A stretch of DNA of 64,000 bases, from the NCBI GenBank assembly GCA_023150375.1, contig JAKLLA010000005.1:248001-312000 (forward strand). The letters are read 5' to 3'. Shown here piece by piece: positions 120 through 42,625 of the stretch. The stretch is from Burkholderiaceae bacterium (GTDB lineage Bacteria; Pseudomonadota; Gammaproteobacteria; Burkholderiales; Burkholderiaceae_C). A model generated the notes under the pieces. It saw only the letters and a program-made list of their open reading frames with translations, was not told the origin of the DNA and ran no database searches. Numbering within the stretch: the first letter of the stretch is position 1; every line of letters begins with the position of its first letter. Both the position numbers and the translations under genes were made by a program.

Positions 120-652
120 GCTCAACGAATGAAAGGGACTTCCCTATCACGGGTTCTGCACACCGAGGTGCGCAGACGGGCAACGAAGTGCCACGATGGG
201 GTTCTCGGCAATCTCATCGGGTATCCCGGAAGGAGAAGTCCATGTCCATTGTCATGCTCGGTATCGACTCCGCCAAGAACGTGTTTGCCTGCATGGGATG
301 AACGAAGGAGCACAGTTCGGTCATGAGCGGTTGCCAGAAAGGTTGAAGCGGGATTCATTCCGAAGACGTGCGTTCGAAGATGCATCACAGGTCAGACCGG
401 CAGCAGGTGAACTCGACTAACCCTGTGTGGGTTTCCTTTGACGAGGCAACCCACGGCGAACGAATGGAGTCCTGCTGAGCGGTTGGTATCTGGGTCCGCA
501 CCACCCGCGGTGCAACAAGGCCGCTTGTAGATGTGCAGTCTGTTCCTCGTGTCAGTGCTCGGACAACGCATGCTGTGGGAAGAAGTCAGGAATTCGAACA
601 CAGTCTTGACGGGGTATTGACTCGACGGGAAGTCTTTGTAGAGGGGTTAGGC
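120..652 (-). mobile_element. Composite attC site A with an embedded decayed IS110/IS1111-type element
   Basis: The outer core boxes are GCTCAAC (120-126) and GTTAGGC (646-652), both fitting RYYYAAC/GTTRRRY. Inside them are complementary 8-bp arms GACTTCCC (137-144) and GGGAAGTC (627-634). These are the R and L arms of an integron attC, but the part that should be a short variable stem is about 480 bp. That part holds the first codons of an IS110-type transposase (242-301) followed by hairpin-rich non-coding DNA, e.g. GTGGGTT...AACCCAC near 428-452 and GCACC...GGTGC near 500-515. The IS1111-attC group is known to insert into attC sites, and this fits an internally deleted relative. It is similar over its full length to 1380-1915. 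Confidence 0.7.
242..301 (+). pseudogene. IS110-family transposase remnant (copy A), frameshifted
   Basis: ATG at 242 follows a GGAAGGAG ribosome-binding sequence and encodes MSIVMLGIDSAKNVFACMG before a stop. G-I-D-x-A-K-x-V-F is the usual N-terminus of IS110-family transposases, where the Asp is the first residue of the DEDD catalytic set. Compared with copy B, a small indel near 292-296 shifts the frame; the homologous reading continues in another frame to about 395. Everything beyond roughly residue 30 of a normal 320-400 aa transposase is missing, so it cannot be active. Confidence 0.7.
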
Positions 653-1363
653 CCCAACGCGCCCAGCAAGGCCACCGATGATTGCGGCGACAACTGGATG
701 AGACAAAAGTTCCTGAAACTTGGACTTCGCGGCAGCCCTTTCTGTGGGCGTCGCGTCTGCGGACTCAATACGAGACAGAAGGTCGCCAAGCGTGAGCTGC
801 AGTACTGGAGAGTTCACAGACTCACCGGCAATGTTCAACTGGCCGTTGACGTCTCCATGAATCGTAACTTGAGGCATCGTCCGCTCCTTCGGAAGAATCT
901 TCGAAAACACAGGGCACTCAGAATAGTGCATGGGTTCGATGTGCTCAAAGTTCCACCGCCAGTCTCGCGCTCCTGGCTGACTACCTTCCGCCGTAAGTGC
1001 CCGTTGTCGACAGTCGGAATCGATCTCATCATAGAAGCGAATGACCGTTGACGCGAAGAGCTTGAATACGTCGTAGGCGACCTCTGGGCAGAAGTTCGAG
1101 AAGCAGTTGGGCACTTCTCCGCCAGAGATTGACGTTGCGCCTTCACCCGTGACGGGCCAAAGCTCATTGGCCTGCCACTTGGCGAGAAGCTGGTCGTGCA
1201 GTGCCTGATCCATCTTGGTCGTGATTCCCTGATCTGAGAGGAGGGACACGGACTCGAAGTTTCTGTGGCATCGATGCACGGTCGCGTGAGGACAGCGCGC
1301 TGCCAATCCCTTCTGGGAGCTCTGCGAGGCGTACCACTGCAAATCGGGGTAAATCGGTACCAA
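647..1363 (-). CDS. Cassette-borne protein of unknown function, 238 aa
   Basis: An open frame of 238 codons from ATG at 1363. Its TAA stop lies inside the attC core box GTTAGGC (646-652), a hallmark of integron cassettes. The start is only about 17 nt from the preceding core box (1380-1386), also typical. The N-terminal half has a Cys/His cluster (about residues 24-33: C-P-H-A-T-V-H-R-C-H) and later C-F-S-N-F-C-P and S-E-C-P-V segments. The last 75 residues, from M-P-Q-V-T-I-H-G-D-V, form a separate-looking module ending in a Gly/Ala-rich hydrophobic tail. I recognise it only as a conserved hypothetical type. No catalytic motif is evident. Confidence 0.72.
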   Translation of the reverse strand: MVPIYPDLQWYASQSSQKGLAARCPHATVHRCHRNFESVSLLSDQGITTKMDQALHDQLLAKWQANELWPVTGEGATSISGGEVPNCFSNFCPEVAYDVFKLFASTVIRFYDEIDSDCRQRALTAEGSQPGARDWRWNFEHIEPMHYSECPVFSKILPKERTMPQVTIHGDVNGQLNIAGESVNSPVLQLTLGDLLSRIESADATPTERAAAKSKFQELLSHPVVAAIIGGLAGRVGA

Positions 1364-1379
1364 TGGCGGCTCCTTTGGG

Positions 1380-1915
1380 GCCTAACGAATGAAAGGGACT
1401 TCCCCATCCCAGGCTCCGCGAGCGGCCGCTTGCAAGCCGCCCACGAAGTGCCACGATGGGGTTCTCGGCAATCTCATCGGGTATCCCGGAAGGAGAAGTC
1501 CATGTCCGTTGTCATGCTCGGTATCGACCTGGCCAAGAAGGTGTTTGCCCCGCATGGGCTGAACAAAGAAGCACAGTTCGAGCATGAGCTGTTTCCAGAA
1601 AGGTTGAATCAGGCTTCTATCCGAAGACGTGCGTTCGAAGATGCATCACACAGGTCAGACCGGCAGTAGGTGAACTCGACTAACCCTGTGTGGGTTTCCT
1701 CTGACGAGGTCATCCACGGCGAACGAATGGAGTCCTGCTGAGCGGTTGGTATCTGGGTCCGCACCAGTCGCGGTGCAACAAGGCCGTTTGTAGATGTGCA
1801 GTCTGTTCCTCGTGTCAGTGCTCGGACAACGCATGCTGTGGGAAGAAGTCAGGAATTCAAATACGGTCTTGACGGGGTATTGACTCGACGGGAAGTCTTT
1901 GTAGACCAGTTAGGC
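1380..1915 (-). mobile_element. Composite attC site B with an embedded decayed IS110/IS1111-type element
   Basis: Core boxes GCCTAAC (1380-1386) and GTTAGGC (1909-1915) enclose the complementary arms GACTTCCC (1397-1404) and GGGAAGTC (1890-1897). The intervening sequence matches copy A over its whole length, including the same internal transposase deletion, with scattered substitutions. The least conserved stretch, about 1405-1440, still forms a hairpin of different sequence (GGCT...AGCC enclosing AGCGG/CCGCT). The shared deletion means the composite site arose once and was then copied with a cassette, rather than by two independent insertions. Confidence 0.72.
1502..1669 (+). pseudogene. IS110-family transposase N-terminal remnant (copy B), 55 aa
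   Basis: ATG at 1502 is preceded by GGAAGGAG. The 55-codon frame begins MSVVMLGIDLAKKVF and ends at TAG 1667-1669. The first 30 residues match the N-terminus of IS110-family transposases, including the first catalytic Asp (G-I-D-L-A-K). The remaining 25 residues do not look like the family and probably come from fusion to the far end of the element after an internal deletion. Unlike copy A this frame is uninterrupted, but it lacks the rest of the DEDD and the Ser-containing C-terminal domain. Confidence 0.7.
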
Positions 1916-1921
1916 ATCACT

Positions 1922-2671
1922 CTAGGCGTGCTCAATGAACTCCCACGCGACGATGCTTATCGACGGCGGGAAGCCCTCGTTGTTGAGGTGCTCCCGAACT
2001 TCTCCGATGAACGATTCAGGCACAACCACTGCCGCGACATCGTCGACGGTGAAGTCAAAGTCTCCGATGTTTCGCCACTCTCTCTCGCGGTAAAAAGTGT
2101 TCTCTGGGGAAGAGTCAAAGCTCGTGACCTTGACAAAGTTCATCAAGAACCCCTTCATCGCTTCTGCGTCGGGCTTGGAGATCGCCTCCTTGTTGTGTGC
2201 TGCCTGGGCCATCAGCTTCATCGCCTGTTGCTCTTGAAACGAGCCTTGGTATCTGAGGAAGTCATAGGCCATTTCAGTCAGCTTGCGGTTCGGCACCATC
2301 ATCTCGACGACTGGCATGCTTTCAGTGGGGATATACATCACCGGCAGGAATGACTTGTGGGCAGCGGTCGCCTTGAAGCCAATGGCGACTTTTCCGTAGT
2401 AGGGAGCGTGGGTGGGAAGGTCTTTCAGCGGGATGTCTGTCACGCAGCAAAATTTAGCGGTTTCCAAGTCTGCAACGACTCGTTCAGTGCAGCGGCCGAG
2501 CAGCTTCTTCGATGTGAGGATCAGCTTCAGGGTGTCCTTAGCTGTAGACGGATCCAGGATGGGTCCTTGCCTCTGTATGTCCGCCGGACGTCGGACCTCT
2601 CGCCAATCGATTCCCTTGGGCGATCCTGTGAAGTGCCAGTAAATGTTTGAGTAGTAGCGTTGTGAGGTCAT
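1922..2671 (-). CDS. AbiGi-like (abortive-infection antitoxin family) cassette protein, 249 aa
   Basis: The 249-aa product begins M-T-S-Q-R-Y-Y-S-N-I-Y-W-H-F-T-G-S and contains C-C-V-T-D-I-P-L around residue 90, followed by H-A-P-Y-Y-G-K-V-A-I-G-F. The Y-S-N-x-x-x-H-F-T start and the F-C-D-I-P-L ... H-x-x-x-Y-G-x-x-x-I-G-F block are what I recall for the AbiGi/DUF2971-type family, named from lactococcal phage-abortive systems. The gene sits between core boxes 2685-2691 and 1909-1915, with its TAG stop a few bases before the latter, so it is an integron cassette. No AbiGii partner is visible. The function as phage defence is inference. Confidence 0.68.
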   Translation of the reverse strand: MTSQRYYSNIYWHFTGSPKGIDWREVRRPADIQRQGPILDPSTAKDTLKLILTSKKLLGRCTERVVADLETAKFCCVTDIPLKDLPTHAPYYGKVAIGFKATAAHKSFLPVMYIPTESMPVVEMMVPNRKLTEMAYDFLRYQGSFQEQQAMKLMAQAAHNKEAISKPDAEAMKGFLMNFVKVTSFDSSPENTFYREREWRNIGDFDFTVDDVAAVVVPESFIGEVREHLNNEGFPPSISIVAWEFIEHA

Positions 2672-2684
2672 GTGTGTCTGTGAT

Positions 2685-2744
2685 GCCTAACGCATGAGGT
2701 AAGGGGCCGCCGCCAGGCGGTCCCGCTTGACCGATGAGTTGTGC
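2685..2744 (-). other. Canonical 60-bp attC site
   Basis: On the minus strand it runs from GCACAAC (2744-2738) to GTTAGGC (2691-2685). A folding pair GGGACCGCC/GGCGGCCCC surrounds a TGGC-type loop, with TCAAGC and TTACC flanks typical of short attC sites. One base of the outer left core deviates from RYYYAAC. It is upstream of the AbiGi-like gene in cassette direction, so it should end an earlier cassette. No convincing gene lies to its right, and no integron integrase gene or attI is seen in the window. Confidence 0.66.
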
Positions 2745-4144: not shown

Positions 4145-4459
4145 ATGACCACGCAGACCATCGGCCTGTTCGAGGCCAAGACGCACCTGTCCGAGCTGGT
4201 GGCACGGGCCGAGGCGGGCGAAGAGATCGTCATCACGCGGCACAACCGGCCGGTGGCGCGGATCGTGCCGATGGCGCCGGAGCCGAGCTTCGACCCCGTG
4301 CGGCGCCGTGAGGCGATCGAGGGACTGCGCCGGTTGCGCGAGGAGTTGCGCAGCAAGGGCATGACGATGAGCAGCGACGAGATCGTGCAGACCCTCCACG
4401 AGATGCGCGAAGAGCAGACCGAACGCAAGATGCGCGCGGCCGGGCTGCTGAAAGACTGA
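4145..4459 (+). CDS. vapB: Type II antitoxin, Phd/YefM-type (VapB)
   Basis: The 104-aa protein has the Phd/YefM N-terminal domain: T-I-G-L-F-E-A-K-T-H-L-S-E-L-V near residues 5-19, then E-E-I-V-I-T-R-H-N-R-P-V-A-R-I-V. This domain dimerises, binds the operon operator and represses it. The C-terminal 60 residues are charged and helical and should wrap the toxin. The start at 4145 is chosen because the domain begins immediately after it; the open frame extends upstream to 3824 without family sequence. Its TGA overlaps the toxin ATG (TGATG at 4457-4461), so the pair is co-translated. Confidence 0.88.
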   Translation: MTTQTIGLFEAKTHLSELVARAEAGEEIVITRHNRPVARIVPMAPEPSFDPVRRREAIEGLRRLREELRSKGMTMSSDEIVQTLHEMREEQTERKMRAAGLLKD

Positions 4460-4899
4460 TGGTCGGCCCGATCCCGCCTGCCCGAGTGGGTGGGCGCAGC
4501 CCTCGAATCGTCCTGGATGCGTCCTACGCCATCGCGGTCGTCATGGGGGACGAGCCGGTTCCGGTCAGTACCGATGTGGTGCTCGCCGCCCAACTGCTGG
4601 TGCCCCCCGTCTGGACCTGGGAGATGGGCAACATCCTGCGGGTCAGCCTGCGACGCGGTCGACTGGGCCGCCCGGAGCTGCCGGCGGTGTTGCAGGCGGT
4701 GGACACGCTTGCCGTGCGTGTCGAGCCGGCCGCAGAGCTGTCGGTGGGGGAGTGGCTGGATCTTGCCGACCGCCACGGGCTCACGACCTATGACGCCCAG
4801 TACCTCGACCTGGCACTGCAGCAGCGCTGCGGGCTGGCCACCCAGGATCGCCGCCTGGCCGAGGCGGCTGAACGGTTGGGCCTGCCGGTCTATGGGTGA
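4459..4899 (+). CDS. vapC: PIN-domain toxin (VapC)
   Basis: A 146-aa PIN-domain ribonuclease. The first acidic residue is in I-V-L-D-A-S-Y (about residue 19). The conserved Glu is in W-T-W-E-M-G-N-I-L (about residue 55). The third acid is in T-T-Y-D-A-Q-Y-L-D (about residue 113) and the last in A-T-Q-D-R-R-L (about residue 130). VapC toxins cleave tRNA or rRNA in a Mg-dependent way and are neutralised by the cognate antitoxin encoded just upstream. The start overlaps the vapB stop. The first 16 residues before the core are longer than usual, so an internal start cannot be excluded. Confidence 0.88.
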   Translation: MVGPIPPARVGGRSPRIVLDASYAIAVVMGDEPVPVSTDVVLAAQLLVPPVWTWEMGNILRVSLRRGRLGRPELPAVLQAVDTLAVRVEPAAELSVGEWLDLADRHGLTTYDAQYLDLALQQRCGLATQDRRLAEAAERLGLPVYG

Positions 4900-4987: not shown

Positions 4988-7641
<2,654 letters not shown>

Positions 7642-42347: not shown

Positions 42348-42424
42348 TGGTAGGCGCGATTGGACTCGAACCAACGACCCCCACCATGTCAAGGTGGTGC
42401 TCTAACCAGCTGAGCTACGCGCCT
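42348..42424 (-). tRNA. tRNA-Val (anticodon GAC)
   Basis: The 77-nt cloverleaf on the minus strand has a 7-bp acceptor stem AGGCGCG/CGCGCCT, D-arm GCTC...GAGC, anticodon stem CCACC/GGTGG with loop TTGACAT (anticodon GAC), a GTTCGAGTC T-loop and an encoded CCA end. It is identical to the copy at 42549-42625. Confidence 0.97.
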
Positions 42425-42548: not shown

Positions 42549-42625
42549 TGGTAGGCGCGATTGGACTCGAACCAACGACCCCCACCATGTCAAGGTGGTG
42601 CTCTAACCAGCTGAGCTACGCGCCT
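42549..42625 (-). tRNA. tRNA-Val (anticodon GAC), second copy
   Basis: Identical to the copy at 42348-42424 over all 77 nt, including CCA. The two are 124 bp apart in the same direction, with one terminator after the distal copy, so they are probably processed from a single transcript. Confidence 0.97.

What the first reader, a model, noticed from the sequence alone, without database searches (positions are those of the whole stretch)
120..1915. Two attC sites each carrying the same decayed IS110-type element, and still bounding cassettes
Both sites keep intact outer core boxes and complementary 8-bp L arms (GACTTCCC/GGGAAGTC), but the stem interior is about 500 bp of IS110-type DNA. The two copies share the same internal transposase deletion yet bound different cassettes, so the composite behaves as one inherited recombination site. 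Either a composite attC can still be captured and moved, or cassettes were duplicated with it and then diverged. Oversized, RNA-rich attC sites of this kind seem under-described. IS1111-attC insertions are established; a stable composite serving several cassettes is inference.
Basis: partly seen in the sequence, partly recalled or inferred. Interest (0 to 1): 0.82.

Follow-up and report, generated by a model that had tools for sequence, protein, structure and literature searches.

The report
Fused IS1111 relics replacing attC stems
Two cassette boundaries in a Leptothrix-group genome are not attC sites carrying one insertion sequence but fusions of the ends of two different IS1111-type elements that took the place of the attC hairpin, so they look more like mobile-DNA scars than like a new kind of recombination site.

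Summary
The letters are as reported: two ~535-bp units (120-652, 1380-1915) with outer core boxes, 8-bp complementary arms, the same gutted transposase, bounding cassettes. The reading changes. Relatives show two IS1111 lineages attacking opposite ends of attC: IS-A just inside one core box, IS-B beside the other. Most complete copies lying in attCs still have the attC stem next to them. The units are an IS-A left end (94.7% to the one IS-A of this genome) joined to an IS-B right end, with no attC stem. The arms GACTTCCC/GGGAAGTC are thus the ISs' subterminal inverted repeats, not L boxes. Five such A/B fusions were found in this genome (one badly decayed; three with one junction, behind three different genes) and none among 30 end-paired elements from other genomes. 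The units keep a well-folded IS-B seekRNA segment but no transposase, and the assembly has no IntI above cut-off. As single strands, boxes and arms pair about as in shuffled-interior controls, or less. Use of the composite by IntI is not excluded, but nothing requires it; homologous exchange between IS ends explains spread and mosaic left ends better.

The parts
120..652 (+). Composite unit 1 (core box GCTCAAC 120-126, core box GTTAGGC 646-652)
   Evidence: Exact limits; alignment
1380..1915 (+). Composite unit 2 (core box GCCTAAC 1380-1386, core box GTTAGGC 1909-1915)
   Evidence: Exact limits
137..144 (+). Left arm GACTTCCC of unit 1: part of the IS-A left subterminal inverted repeat
   Evidence: Sequence; same repeat at the left end of complete IS-A
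627..634 (+). Right arm GGGAAGTC of unit 1: part of the IS-B right subterminal inverted repeat
   Evidence: Sequence; same repeat at the right end of complete IS-B
1397..1404 (+). Left arm of unit 2 (IS-A subterminal repeat)
1890..1897 (+). Right arm of unit 2 (IS-B subterminal repeat)
1387..1568 (+). IS-A-derived part of unit 2: left end, variable hairpin leader, about the first 22 transposase codons
   Evidence: 94.7% over 188 bp to the near-complete IS-A at G000:C28:4408-2759 minus
1615..1905 (+). IS-B-derived part of unit 2: non-coding region and right end
   Evidence: 67-83% to IS-B right ends of 12 loci, 86% over 184 bp to the Leptothrix discophora copy; IS-A gives only 65-67% over 102-109 bp
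1645..1748 (+). seekRNA-like segment of unit 2 (guide 1 CTAACCC 1680-1686, guide 2 GAACGAATGG 1721-1730)
   Evidence: Consensus fold with 15 of 15 pairs kept; own fold; guide-flank test on IS-B
382..485 (+). seekRNA-like segment of unit 1 (guide 1 417-423, guide 2 458-467)
647..1363 (-). Cassette gene of unit 1, up to 238 aa (TTG start; first ATG gives 188), stop beside the right box; no Pfam family
1922..2671 (-). Cassette gene of unit 2, 249 aa, AbiGi-like (PF10899)
2685..2744 (-). Probable ordinary short attC bounding the array (read by eye, no tool)
   Evidence: Sequence; my own scan for attC did not report it

Best explanation
Each unit is a scar made from two different IS1111-family elements that target opposite ends of attC. 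IS-A inserted just inside one core box (GCCTAACG|), IS-B beside the other (|GAGGGGTTAGGC). A deletion running from inside IS-A to inside IS-B, within one attC or across two neighbouring attCs, removed the attC stem and both transposase cores. That left box - IS-A left end - IS-B non-coding region and right end - box. The chimera is shown by sequence comparison; the deletion event is inferred. The two IS families share the subterminal repeat AGGGACTTCCC, so the fusion has complementary arms that imitate L boxes. The fused unit then reached other cassettes through homologous exchange or gene conversion between shared IS-A and IS-B end sequences (inferred from mosaic left ends and differing right spacers), and has since decayed. 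It cannot transpose by itself (no transposase), and there is no evidence that IntI still uses it.
For: Unit positions 1-190 match only IS-A among 19 reference elements (7 IS-A, 12 IS-B), 94.7% to the own-genome copy; 237-538 match IS-B right ends. Complete elements from other genomes: 9 of 9 end-paired IS-A have ...AAC on the left, 7 of 9 a recognisable attC stem with a second box on the right; 14 of 21 IS-B have an attC arm on the left, 13 of 21 a GTTAG box on the right (read by eye). Rejoining the flanks of the own-genome IS-A gives a 130-nt attC hairpin. Of these 30 end-paired elements 21 are B-B, 9 A-A, 0 mixed; 5 mixed in this genome. Mosaic: alignment columns 30-66, copy 1 vs its neighbour C28L 33/36, copy 2 vs C35 35/36, copy 1 vs copy 2 only 18/36, while columns 66-135 are 65/65 between copies 1 and 2. 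Right spacers differ: AGGGG, ACCAG, AGGGG. IS-B is mobile elsewhere: three identical 1506-bp copies in three attCs of one array, two identical copies in another.
Against: No attC carrying both IS-A and IS-B was noticed in the fetched loci (by eye), so the double-insertion route has no observed intermediate. One complete IS-A elsewhere (L084) already lacks the stem: its right end is followed directly by a box-like TTTAGGC, so stem loss does not need a fusion with IS-B. One more (L101) has no recognisable attC on its right. No IS-B transposase remains in this genome, so that parent is gone. IS-B references come from other species. The exchange step rests on few sites, would have to happen several times, and the left hairpin may be hypervariable rather than exchanged. 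C35 differs from copy 2 in columns 66-135 (55/68), so the descent of the three units is not simple.
Confidence: 0.64

Rival explanations
1. Composite attC: the IS repeats act as L boxes and IntI captured and moved the composite with its cassettes.
For: Boxes intact in the windows's two units and nearly so in C35 (GTCAGGC on the right); compact cassette spacing, gene stop 3-5 bp from the right box (4 units) and start 12-21 bp from the left box (4 units); the arms can pair; the outer bases of the left box differ between copies (GCT/GCC), as expected beyond an R' exchange point; IntI genes exist in 4 of 13 genomes of the genus, own genome included.
Against: No stem or true L boxes; P(R) and P(L) about equal to or below shuffled-interior controls (largest excess copy 2 plus strand, P(L) 0.785 against 0.715), copy 1 P(L) 0.16-0.17 and P(R) below 0.01; no IntI above cut-off in this assembly; exchange at R' does not separate an attC from its gene (recalled), yet three unrelated genes carry the same-junction unit; right spacer of copy 2 (ACCAG) differs from AGGGG.
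Confidence: 0.1
2. Non-autonomous IS1111 (MITE-like) unit, moved in trans by an IS-B transposase with the unit's own seekRNA.
For: seekRNA segment keeps 15 of 15 consensus pairs in all three same-junction units; guide 2 (CGAACGAATG) matches the left junction of unit 2 (CTAACGAATG) at 9 of 10 positions and guide 1 matches the right box (read); both subterminal repeats present; internally deleted IS-A copies with both own ends exist in other genomes (384 and 601 bp).
Against: A fresh insertion into a native attC would leave the attC stem on one side; none is seen beside the A/B composites. No IS-B transposase in the genome.
Confidence: 0.1
3. A single third IS lineage (IS-A-like left, IS-B-like right) inserted once, and the cassettes were duplicated with it and then diverged.
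For: Three units share one junction.
Against: The two window cassette proteins have no BLASTP match and the other neighbours look different by eye; no mixed element among 30 from elsewhere; stem missing.
Confidence: 0.05

Closest known systems
IS1111-attC group (Tetu & Holmes 2008; Post & Hall 2009; neither paper read: the first is not held, the second seen only in reference lists)
   Same: DEDD transposase family (PF01548 + PF02371), subterminal inverted repeats, long non-coding region downstream of tnp, insertion at a fixed place in attC
   Different: Two lineages occupying opposite ends of attC; the window units are fusions of the two and have lost the attC stem and the transposase
seekRNA-guided IS1111 elements ISKpn4/ISPst6/ISPa25 (Siddiquee et al. 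2024, PMC11187229, passages read)
   Same: IS-B non-coding region has two guides in the described order (top-strand match 5', bottom-strand match 3') that vary with the flanks
   Different: Window units keep the seekRNA segment but no transposase; their left end comes from another element
Integron attC site
   Same: Outer R boxes with cassette genes tightly on either side
   Different: No native L boxes or hairpin stem; ~500 bp of IS DNA instead

Membership tests
IS1111 family insertion sequence (complete IS-A and IS-B) | IS110-type DEDD transposase | tested here: met
   PF01548 and PF02371 above cut-off for one IS-A and one IS-B protein
IS1111 family insertion sequence (complete IS-A and IS-B) | Subterminal inverted repeats of about 11-13 bp | tested here: met
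   IS-B AGGGACTTCCC/GGGAAGTCCCT perfect 11 bp; IS-A AGGGACTTCCCC/GGGGAAGCCCTT, 10 of 12 (read by eye); definition from PMC11187229 passage
IS1111 family insertion sequence (complete IS-A and IS-B) | Long non-coding region downstream of tnp encoding a two-guide RNA | tested here: met
   IS-B only: in 18 distinct elements 0 of 2000 reassignments reach the observed match, for each flank (relatedness not controlled); 11 of 15 consensus pairs with two-sided changes. IS-A not tested apart; transcription not tested
IS1111 family insertion sequence (window units) | Both ends from one element and a transposase | tested here: not met
   Left end IS-A, right end IS-B, transposase core deleted
Integron attC site (window units) | R'' and R' core boxes | tested here: met
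Integron attC site (window units) | L boxes and imperfect hairpin stem | tested here: not met
   Arms are IS repeats; stem absent; pairing about equal to or below shuffled control
Integron attC site (window units) | Recombination by IntI | not testable with these tools
   Needs an assay; no IntI above cut-off in the assembly
Non-autonomous IS1111 (MITE-like) unit | Copies inserted in otherwise intact targets | tested here: not met
   No attC stem beside the A/B composites of this genome

The most novel reading that the evidence does not exclude
The IS repeats have taken over the role of L boxes: a stemless, IS-derived attC that IntI can still recombine, perhaps at either box because it lacks the asymmetry of a native attC. 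It would thereby hop between genes and supply ready-made recombination sites to new cassettes.
Probability: 0.07. Interest if true: 0.85.

Novelty: new variant of a known kind. Interest (0 to 1): 0.42.

Why it matters
It corrects a tempting reading (an IS inside an attC with intact L boxes) and shows how attC stems can be lost while cassette boundaries look intact, which could mislead attC finders and arguments about oversized sites. It also shows two IS1111 lineages dividing one target between them, with IS-B guides that vary with the flanks. If the composites were recombinogenic they would bear on how cassettes acquire attC sites, an open question (recalled).

Tried and rejected
Whole-composite folding: shuffled-sequence z -0.07 for unit 2 minus strand; R/L pairing about equal to or below the shuffled-interior control. 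The first version of that calculation had misaligned R-box indices and is not used (only its native-attC value, P(R) 0.82-0.83, is kept).

Finding the ancestral attC of the same cassettes: besides the own genome the 249-aa gene has one relative (76%) and the 238-aa gene five (best 52%) in a set of 399. No clear attC was seen by eye in the two best flanks. No help.

A simple attC scan was too strict: one candidate in six stretches, missing attCs visible by eye, so no attC census is given. A shared 96-bp segment between C28 and C35 was examined as a possible attC and dropped.

A third autonomous IS with IS-A left and IS-B right ends was considered because guide 2 of the C20 copy reads CTAACGAATG like IS-A guides. 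It was rejected because CGAACGAATGG, the guide of the three same-junction units, also occurs in several ordinary IS-B and no mixed complete element was found.

Plasmid searches with both transposases (both capped at 5000 records) gave generic IS110 names, IS1492 and ISPsy16 among the listed rows, and no attC-linked name. The PF01548 search of the own genome reported nothing although an IS-A transposase is there; protein searches found it. The only hits are the two pieces of that one copy. The exact IS-B right-end pattern gave 16 stretches in the genome collection, mostly Burkholderiales; the cyanobacterial one looks like chance.

Limits: one search scored two candidates per genome and lists part of its matches; the 58 right ends come from loci fetched because they matched one part of the unit or the pattern; 28 of the 58 had no left end found (several lie near a contig or locus end) and are not counted; three and two of the 30 are identical copies. 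In one search two rows were dropped: C28:246817 (truncated left end paired with the next unit's right end) and a three-mismatch right end inside the near-complete IS-A. Tetu & Holmes 2008 is not held and Post & Hall 2009 was not looked up, so a published fused or double-ended case cannot be excluded. Searches for such a case in the held library: (10 to 15 titles shown each); none of the listed titles describes it.

Full report
OBSERVATION. Genes of the array run on the minus strand: the 238-aa gene stops 5 bp from the right box of unit 1 and the 249-aa AbiGi-like gene (PF10899) lies beside the right box of unit 2. In cassette terms unit 1 belongs to the first gene and unit 2 to the second; the first gene is also unit 2's left neighbour.

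THE SAME GENOME. The window is contig C28:248001-312000 of a 4.63-Mb, 43-contig genome. A genome of its genus, G373, has a contig of the same length (331877) and the same sequence round an IS-B right end as Leptothrix discophora CCM 2812, so the window is from the Leptothrix group. A third unit with the same junction lies on C35:41975-42513, a shorter one on C20:259540-259859 (C20b), a badly decayed one on C1 near 307138-307474 (C1a), plus fragments. The right-hand (cassette) genes of copy 1, C35, C20b and C1a stop 3-5 bp from the box; the left-hand genes of copy 1, copy 2, C35 and C20b start 12-21 bp from the box. The five right-hand genes look unrelated; only the two in the window were compared by BLASTP.

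TWO IS LINEAGES. In the same genome at C28:4408-2759 (minus) lies a near-complete IS whose left end is 94.7% identical to unit 2 positions 3-190 of the query. Its right end is followed by the rest of a real attC; rejoining the flanks gives a 130-nt attC hairpin. This is IS-A: left GAATGAAAGGGACTTCCCC, right GGGAAGCCCTTGTAGT, placed next to the box GCCTAAC. A second lineage, IS-B, has left GAATACGAAGGGACTTCCC and right GGGAAGTCC(C/T)TGTAGA. Among 21 end-paired IS-B from other genomes 14 have an attC arm on the left and 13 a GTTAG box on the right; the other seven sit elsewhere (by eye). Among 9 end-paired IS-A all have ...AAC on the left and 7 an attC stem and second box on the right; L084 has a box-like TTTAGGC directly after the IS with no stem, and L101 has no recognisable attC there. 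So stem loss beside an IS-A has happened at least once without IS-B. The two transposases are about 50% identical, both PF01548 plus PF02371. IS-B is mobile: one array has three identical 1506-bp copies in three attCs, another two identical 1503-bp copies.

THE UNITS ARE CHIMERAS. Unit positions 1-190 match IS-A and none of 12 IS-B; 237-538 match IS-B right ends (67-83%; 86% over 184 bp to the L. discophora copy), while IS-A gives only matches of 65-67% over 102-109 bp there. Among elements from other genomes with both ends found, 21 are B-B, 9 are A-A and none is mixed (30 of 58 right ends examined; the other 28 had no left end found). In this genome five are mixed: copies 1 and 2, C35, C20b, C1a, all without an attC stem. 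The complementary arms are therefore the repeats that both ISs carry (AGGGACTTCCC; IS1111 subterminal repeats are usually 11-13 bp, PMC11187229 passage), not attC L boxes.

THE RNA PART. The IS-B region in the units is a seekRNA-like segment. In 18 distinct IS-B elements the sequence matching the right flank (reverse complement) and the left flank exceeds every one of 2000 random reassignments (mean longest match 6.56 against 5.47, and 6.72 against 5.53; relatedness not controlled). A consensus fold of 39 segments (3 units and 36 from relatives, one of these an empty row and a few of them IS-A or poorly matching) has 15 pairs, 536 of 565 cells paired, 11 pairs with two-sided changes; copy 1, copy 2 and C35 keep 15 of 15 and fold alike on their own. 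Only two of the 15 pairs vary among the three units, so this says little about selection after the fusion.

DOES THE COMPOSITE ACT AS attC? As single-stranded DNA (ranges over the two strands, 15 shuffles each): copy 1 P(R) 0.002-0.009 and P(L) 0.16-0.17, controls 0.006-0.007 and 0.42-0.70; copy 2 P(R) 0.84-0.96 and P(L) 0.25-0.79, controls 0.95-0.96 and 0.72-0.73; C35 P(R) 0.19-0.47 and P(L) 0.63-0.65, controls 0.17-0.53 and 0.73-0.79. The largest excess over a control is copy 2, plus strand, P(L) 0.785 against 0.715. So copy 2 can pair its boxes, but any interior would do as well. No IntI above the family cut-off is in the assembly; 4 of 13 genomes of the genus, own included, have one. An IntI in an assembly gap cannot be excluded. 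Known IntI chemistry exchanges at R' and keeps an attC with its gene (recalled), so three unrelated genes sharing one junction call for another route.

HOW IT SPREAD. Alignment columns 30-66 (the leader hairpin) of copy 1 resemble the neighbouring truncated IS-A left end C28L (33/36) and not copy 2 (18/36); copy 2 matches C35 (35/36), the near-complete IS-A (35/36) and C20b (36/36); columns 66-135 are then identical between copies 1 and 2 (65/65), while C35 differs from both there (55/68). The spacer beside the right box is AGGGG, ACCAG, AGGGG. All fit exchange between IS ends at different attCs, but a hypervariable hairpin is not excluded. For ISEc11, replacing the target-derived flank on either side prevented circle formation and transposition (PMC11187229 passage). 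The unit's left flank is not the usual IS-B flank, though it matches guide 2 at 9 of 10 positions, so trans-mobilisation is kept as a rival.

LITERATURE. Targeting of attC by IS1111 members is established (PMC11187229, PMC11089894, PMC12444791, PMC11616780: passages only). PMC11616780 notes limited experimental evidence on how IS1111-group insertions affect integron function. The two founding papers were not read. In the listings I saw no title describing fused IS ends in place of an attC stem.

VERDICT. A real and instructive structure: a fused double-IS scar that mimics an attC. New variant of a known kind, moderate interest; the bolder reading (an IS-derived working attC) is testable but not favoured.

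Noticed in passing
4145-4456 and 4459-4899 (+): Phd/YefM antitoxin and PIN-domain toxin pair just upstream of alaS (PF02604, PF01850; alaS named from recall of its sequence).
   Followed up: no
1922-2671 (-): Cassette gene is AbiGi-like (PF10899), a possible phage-defence cassette; its one family relative (76%, G052) shows no obvious attC in its flanks by eye.
   Followed up: partly
L067, L068, L074, L075, L077, L081, L092: IS-B relatives whose left flank is not an attC arm; some carry guides matching their unusual flanks, such as L081 and L068 on the right and L074, L077 and L092 on the left, as if retargeted.
   Followed up: partly
L084 (G081:C1), IS-A right end near 5874 minus: A complete IS-A between two box-like sequences with the attC stem missing and a short ORF ending 4 nt from the IS: a stemless box-IS-box site with its transposase still there.
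   Followed up: partly
L088 around 7348; L102 around 7600 (minus-strand numbering): Internally deleted IS-A copies (384 and 601 bp) with both IS-A ends still in an attC, possible non-autonomous forms.
   Followed up: no
148-180 and 1408-1440: IS-A leader holds a fast-changing palindromic hairpin between the subterminal repeat and the transposase start, with two quite different versions in this genome.
   Followed up: no
L080 around 5698-5852 (minus): An IS-A apparently inserted inside the non-coding region of an IS-B.
   Followed up: no
42351-42424 and 42552-42625 (-): Two tRNA genes with equal scores about 130 bp apart.
   Followed up: no
G000:C28:3205-4287 (-): The only IS-A transposase match of this genome is in two pieces with about 66 bp between them in one open frame.
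   Followed up: partly
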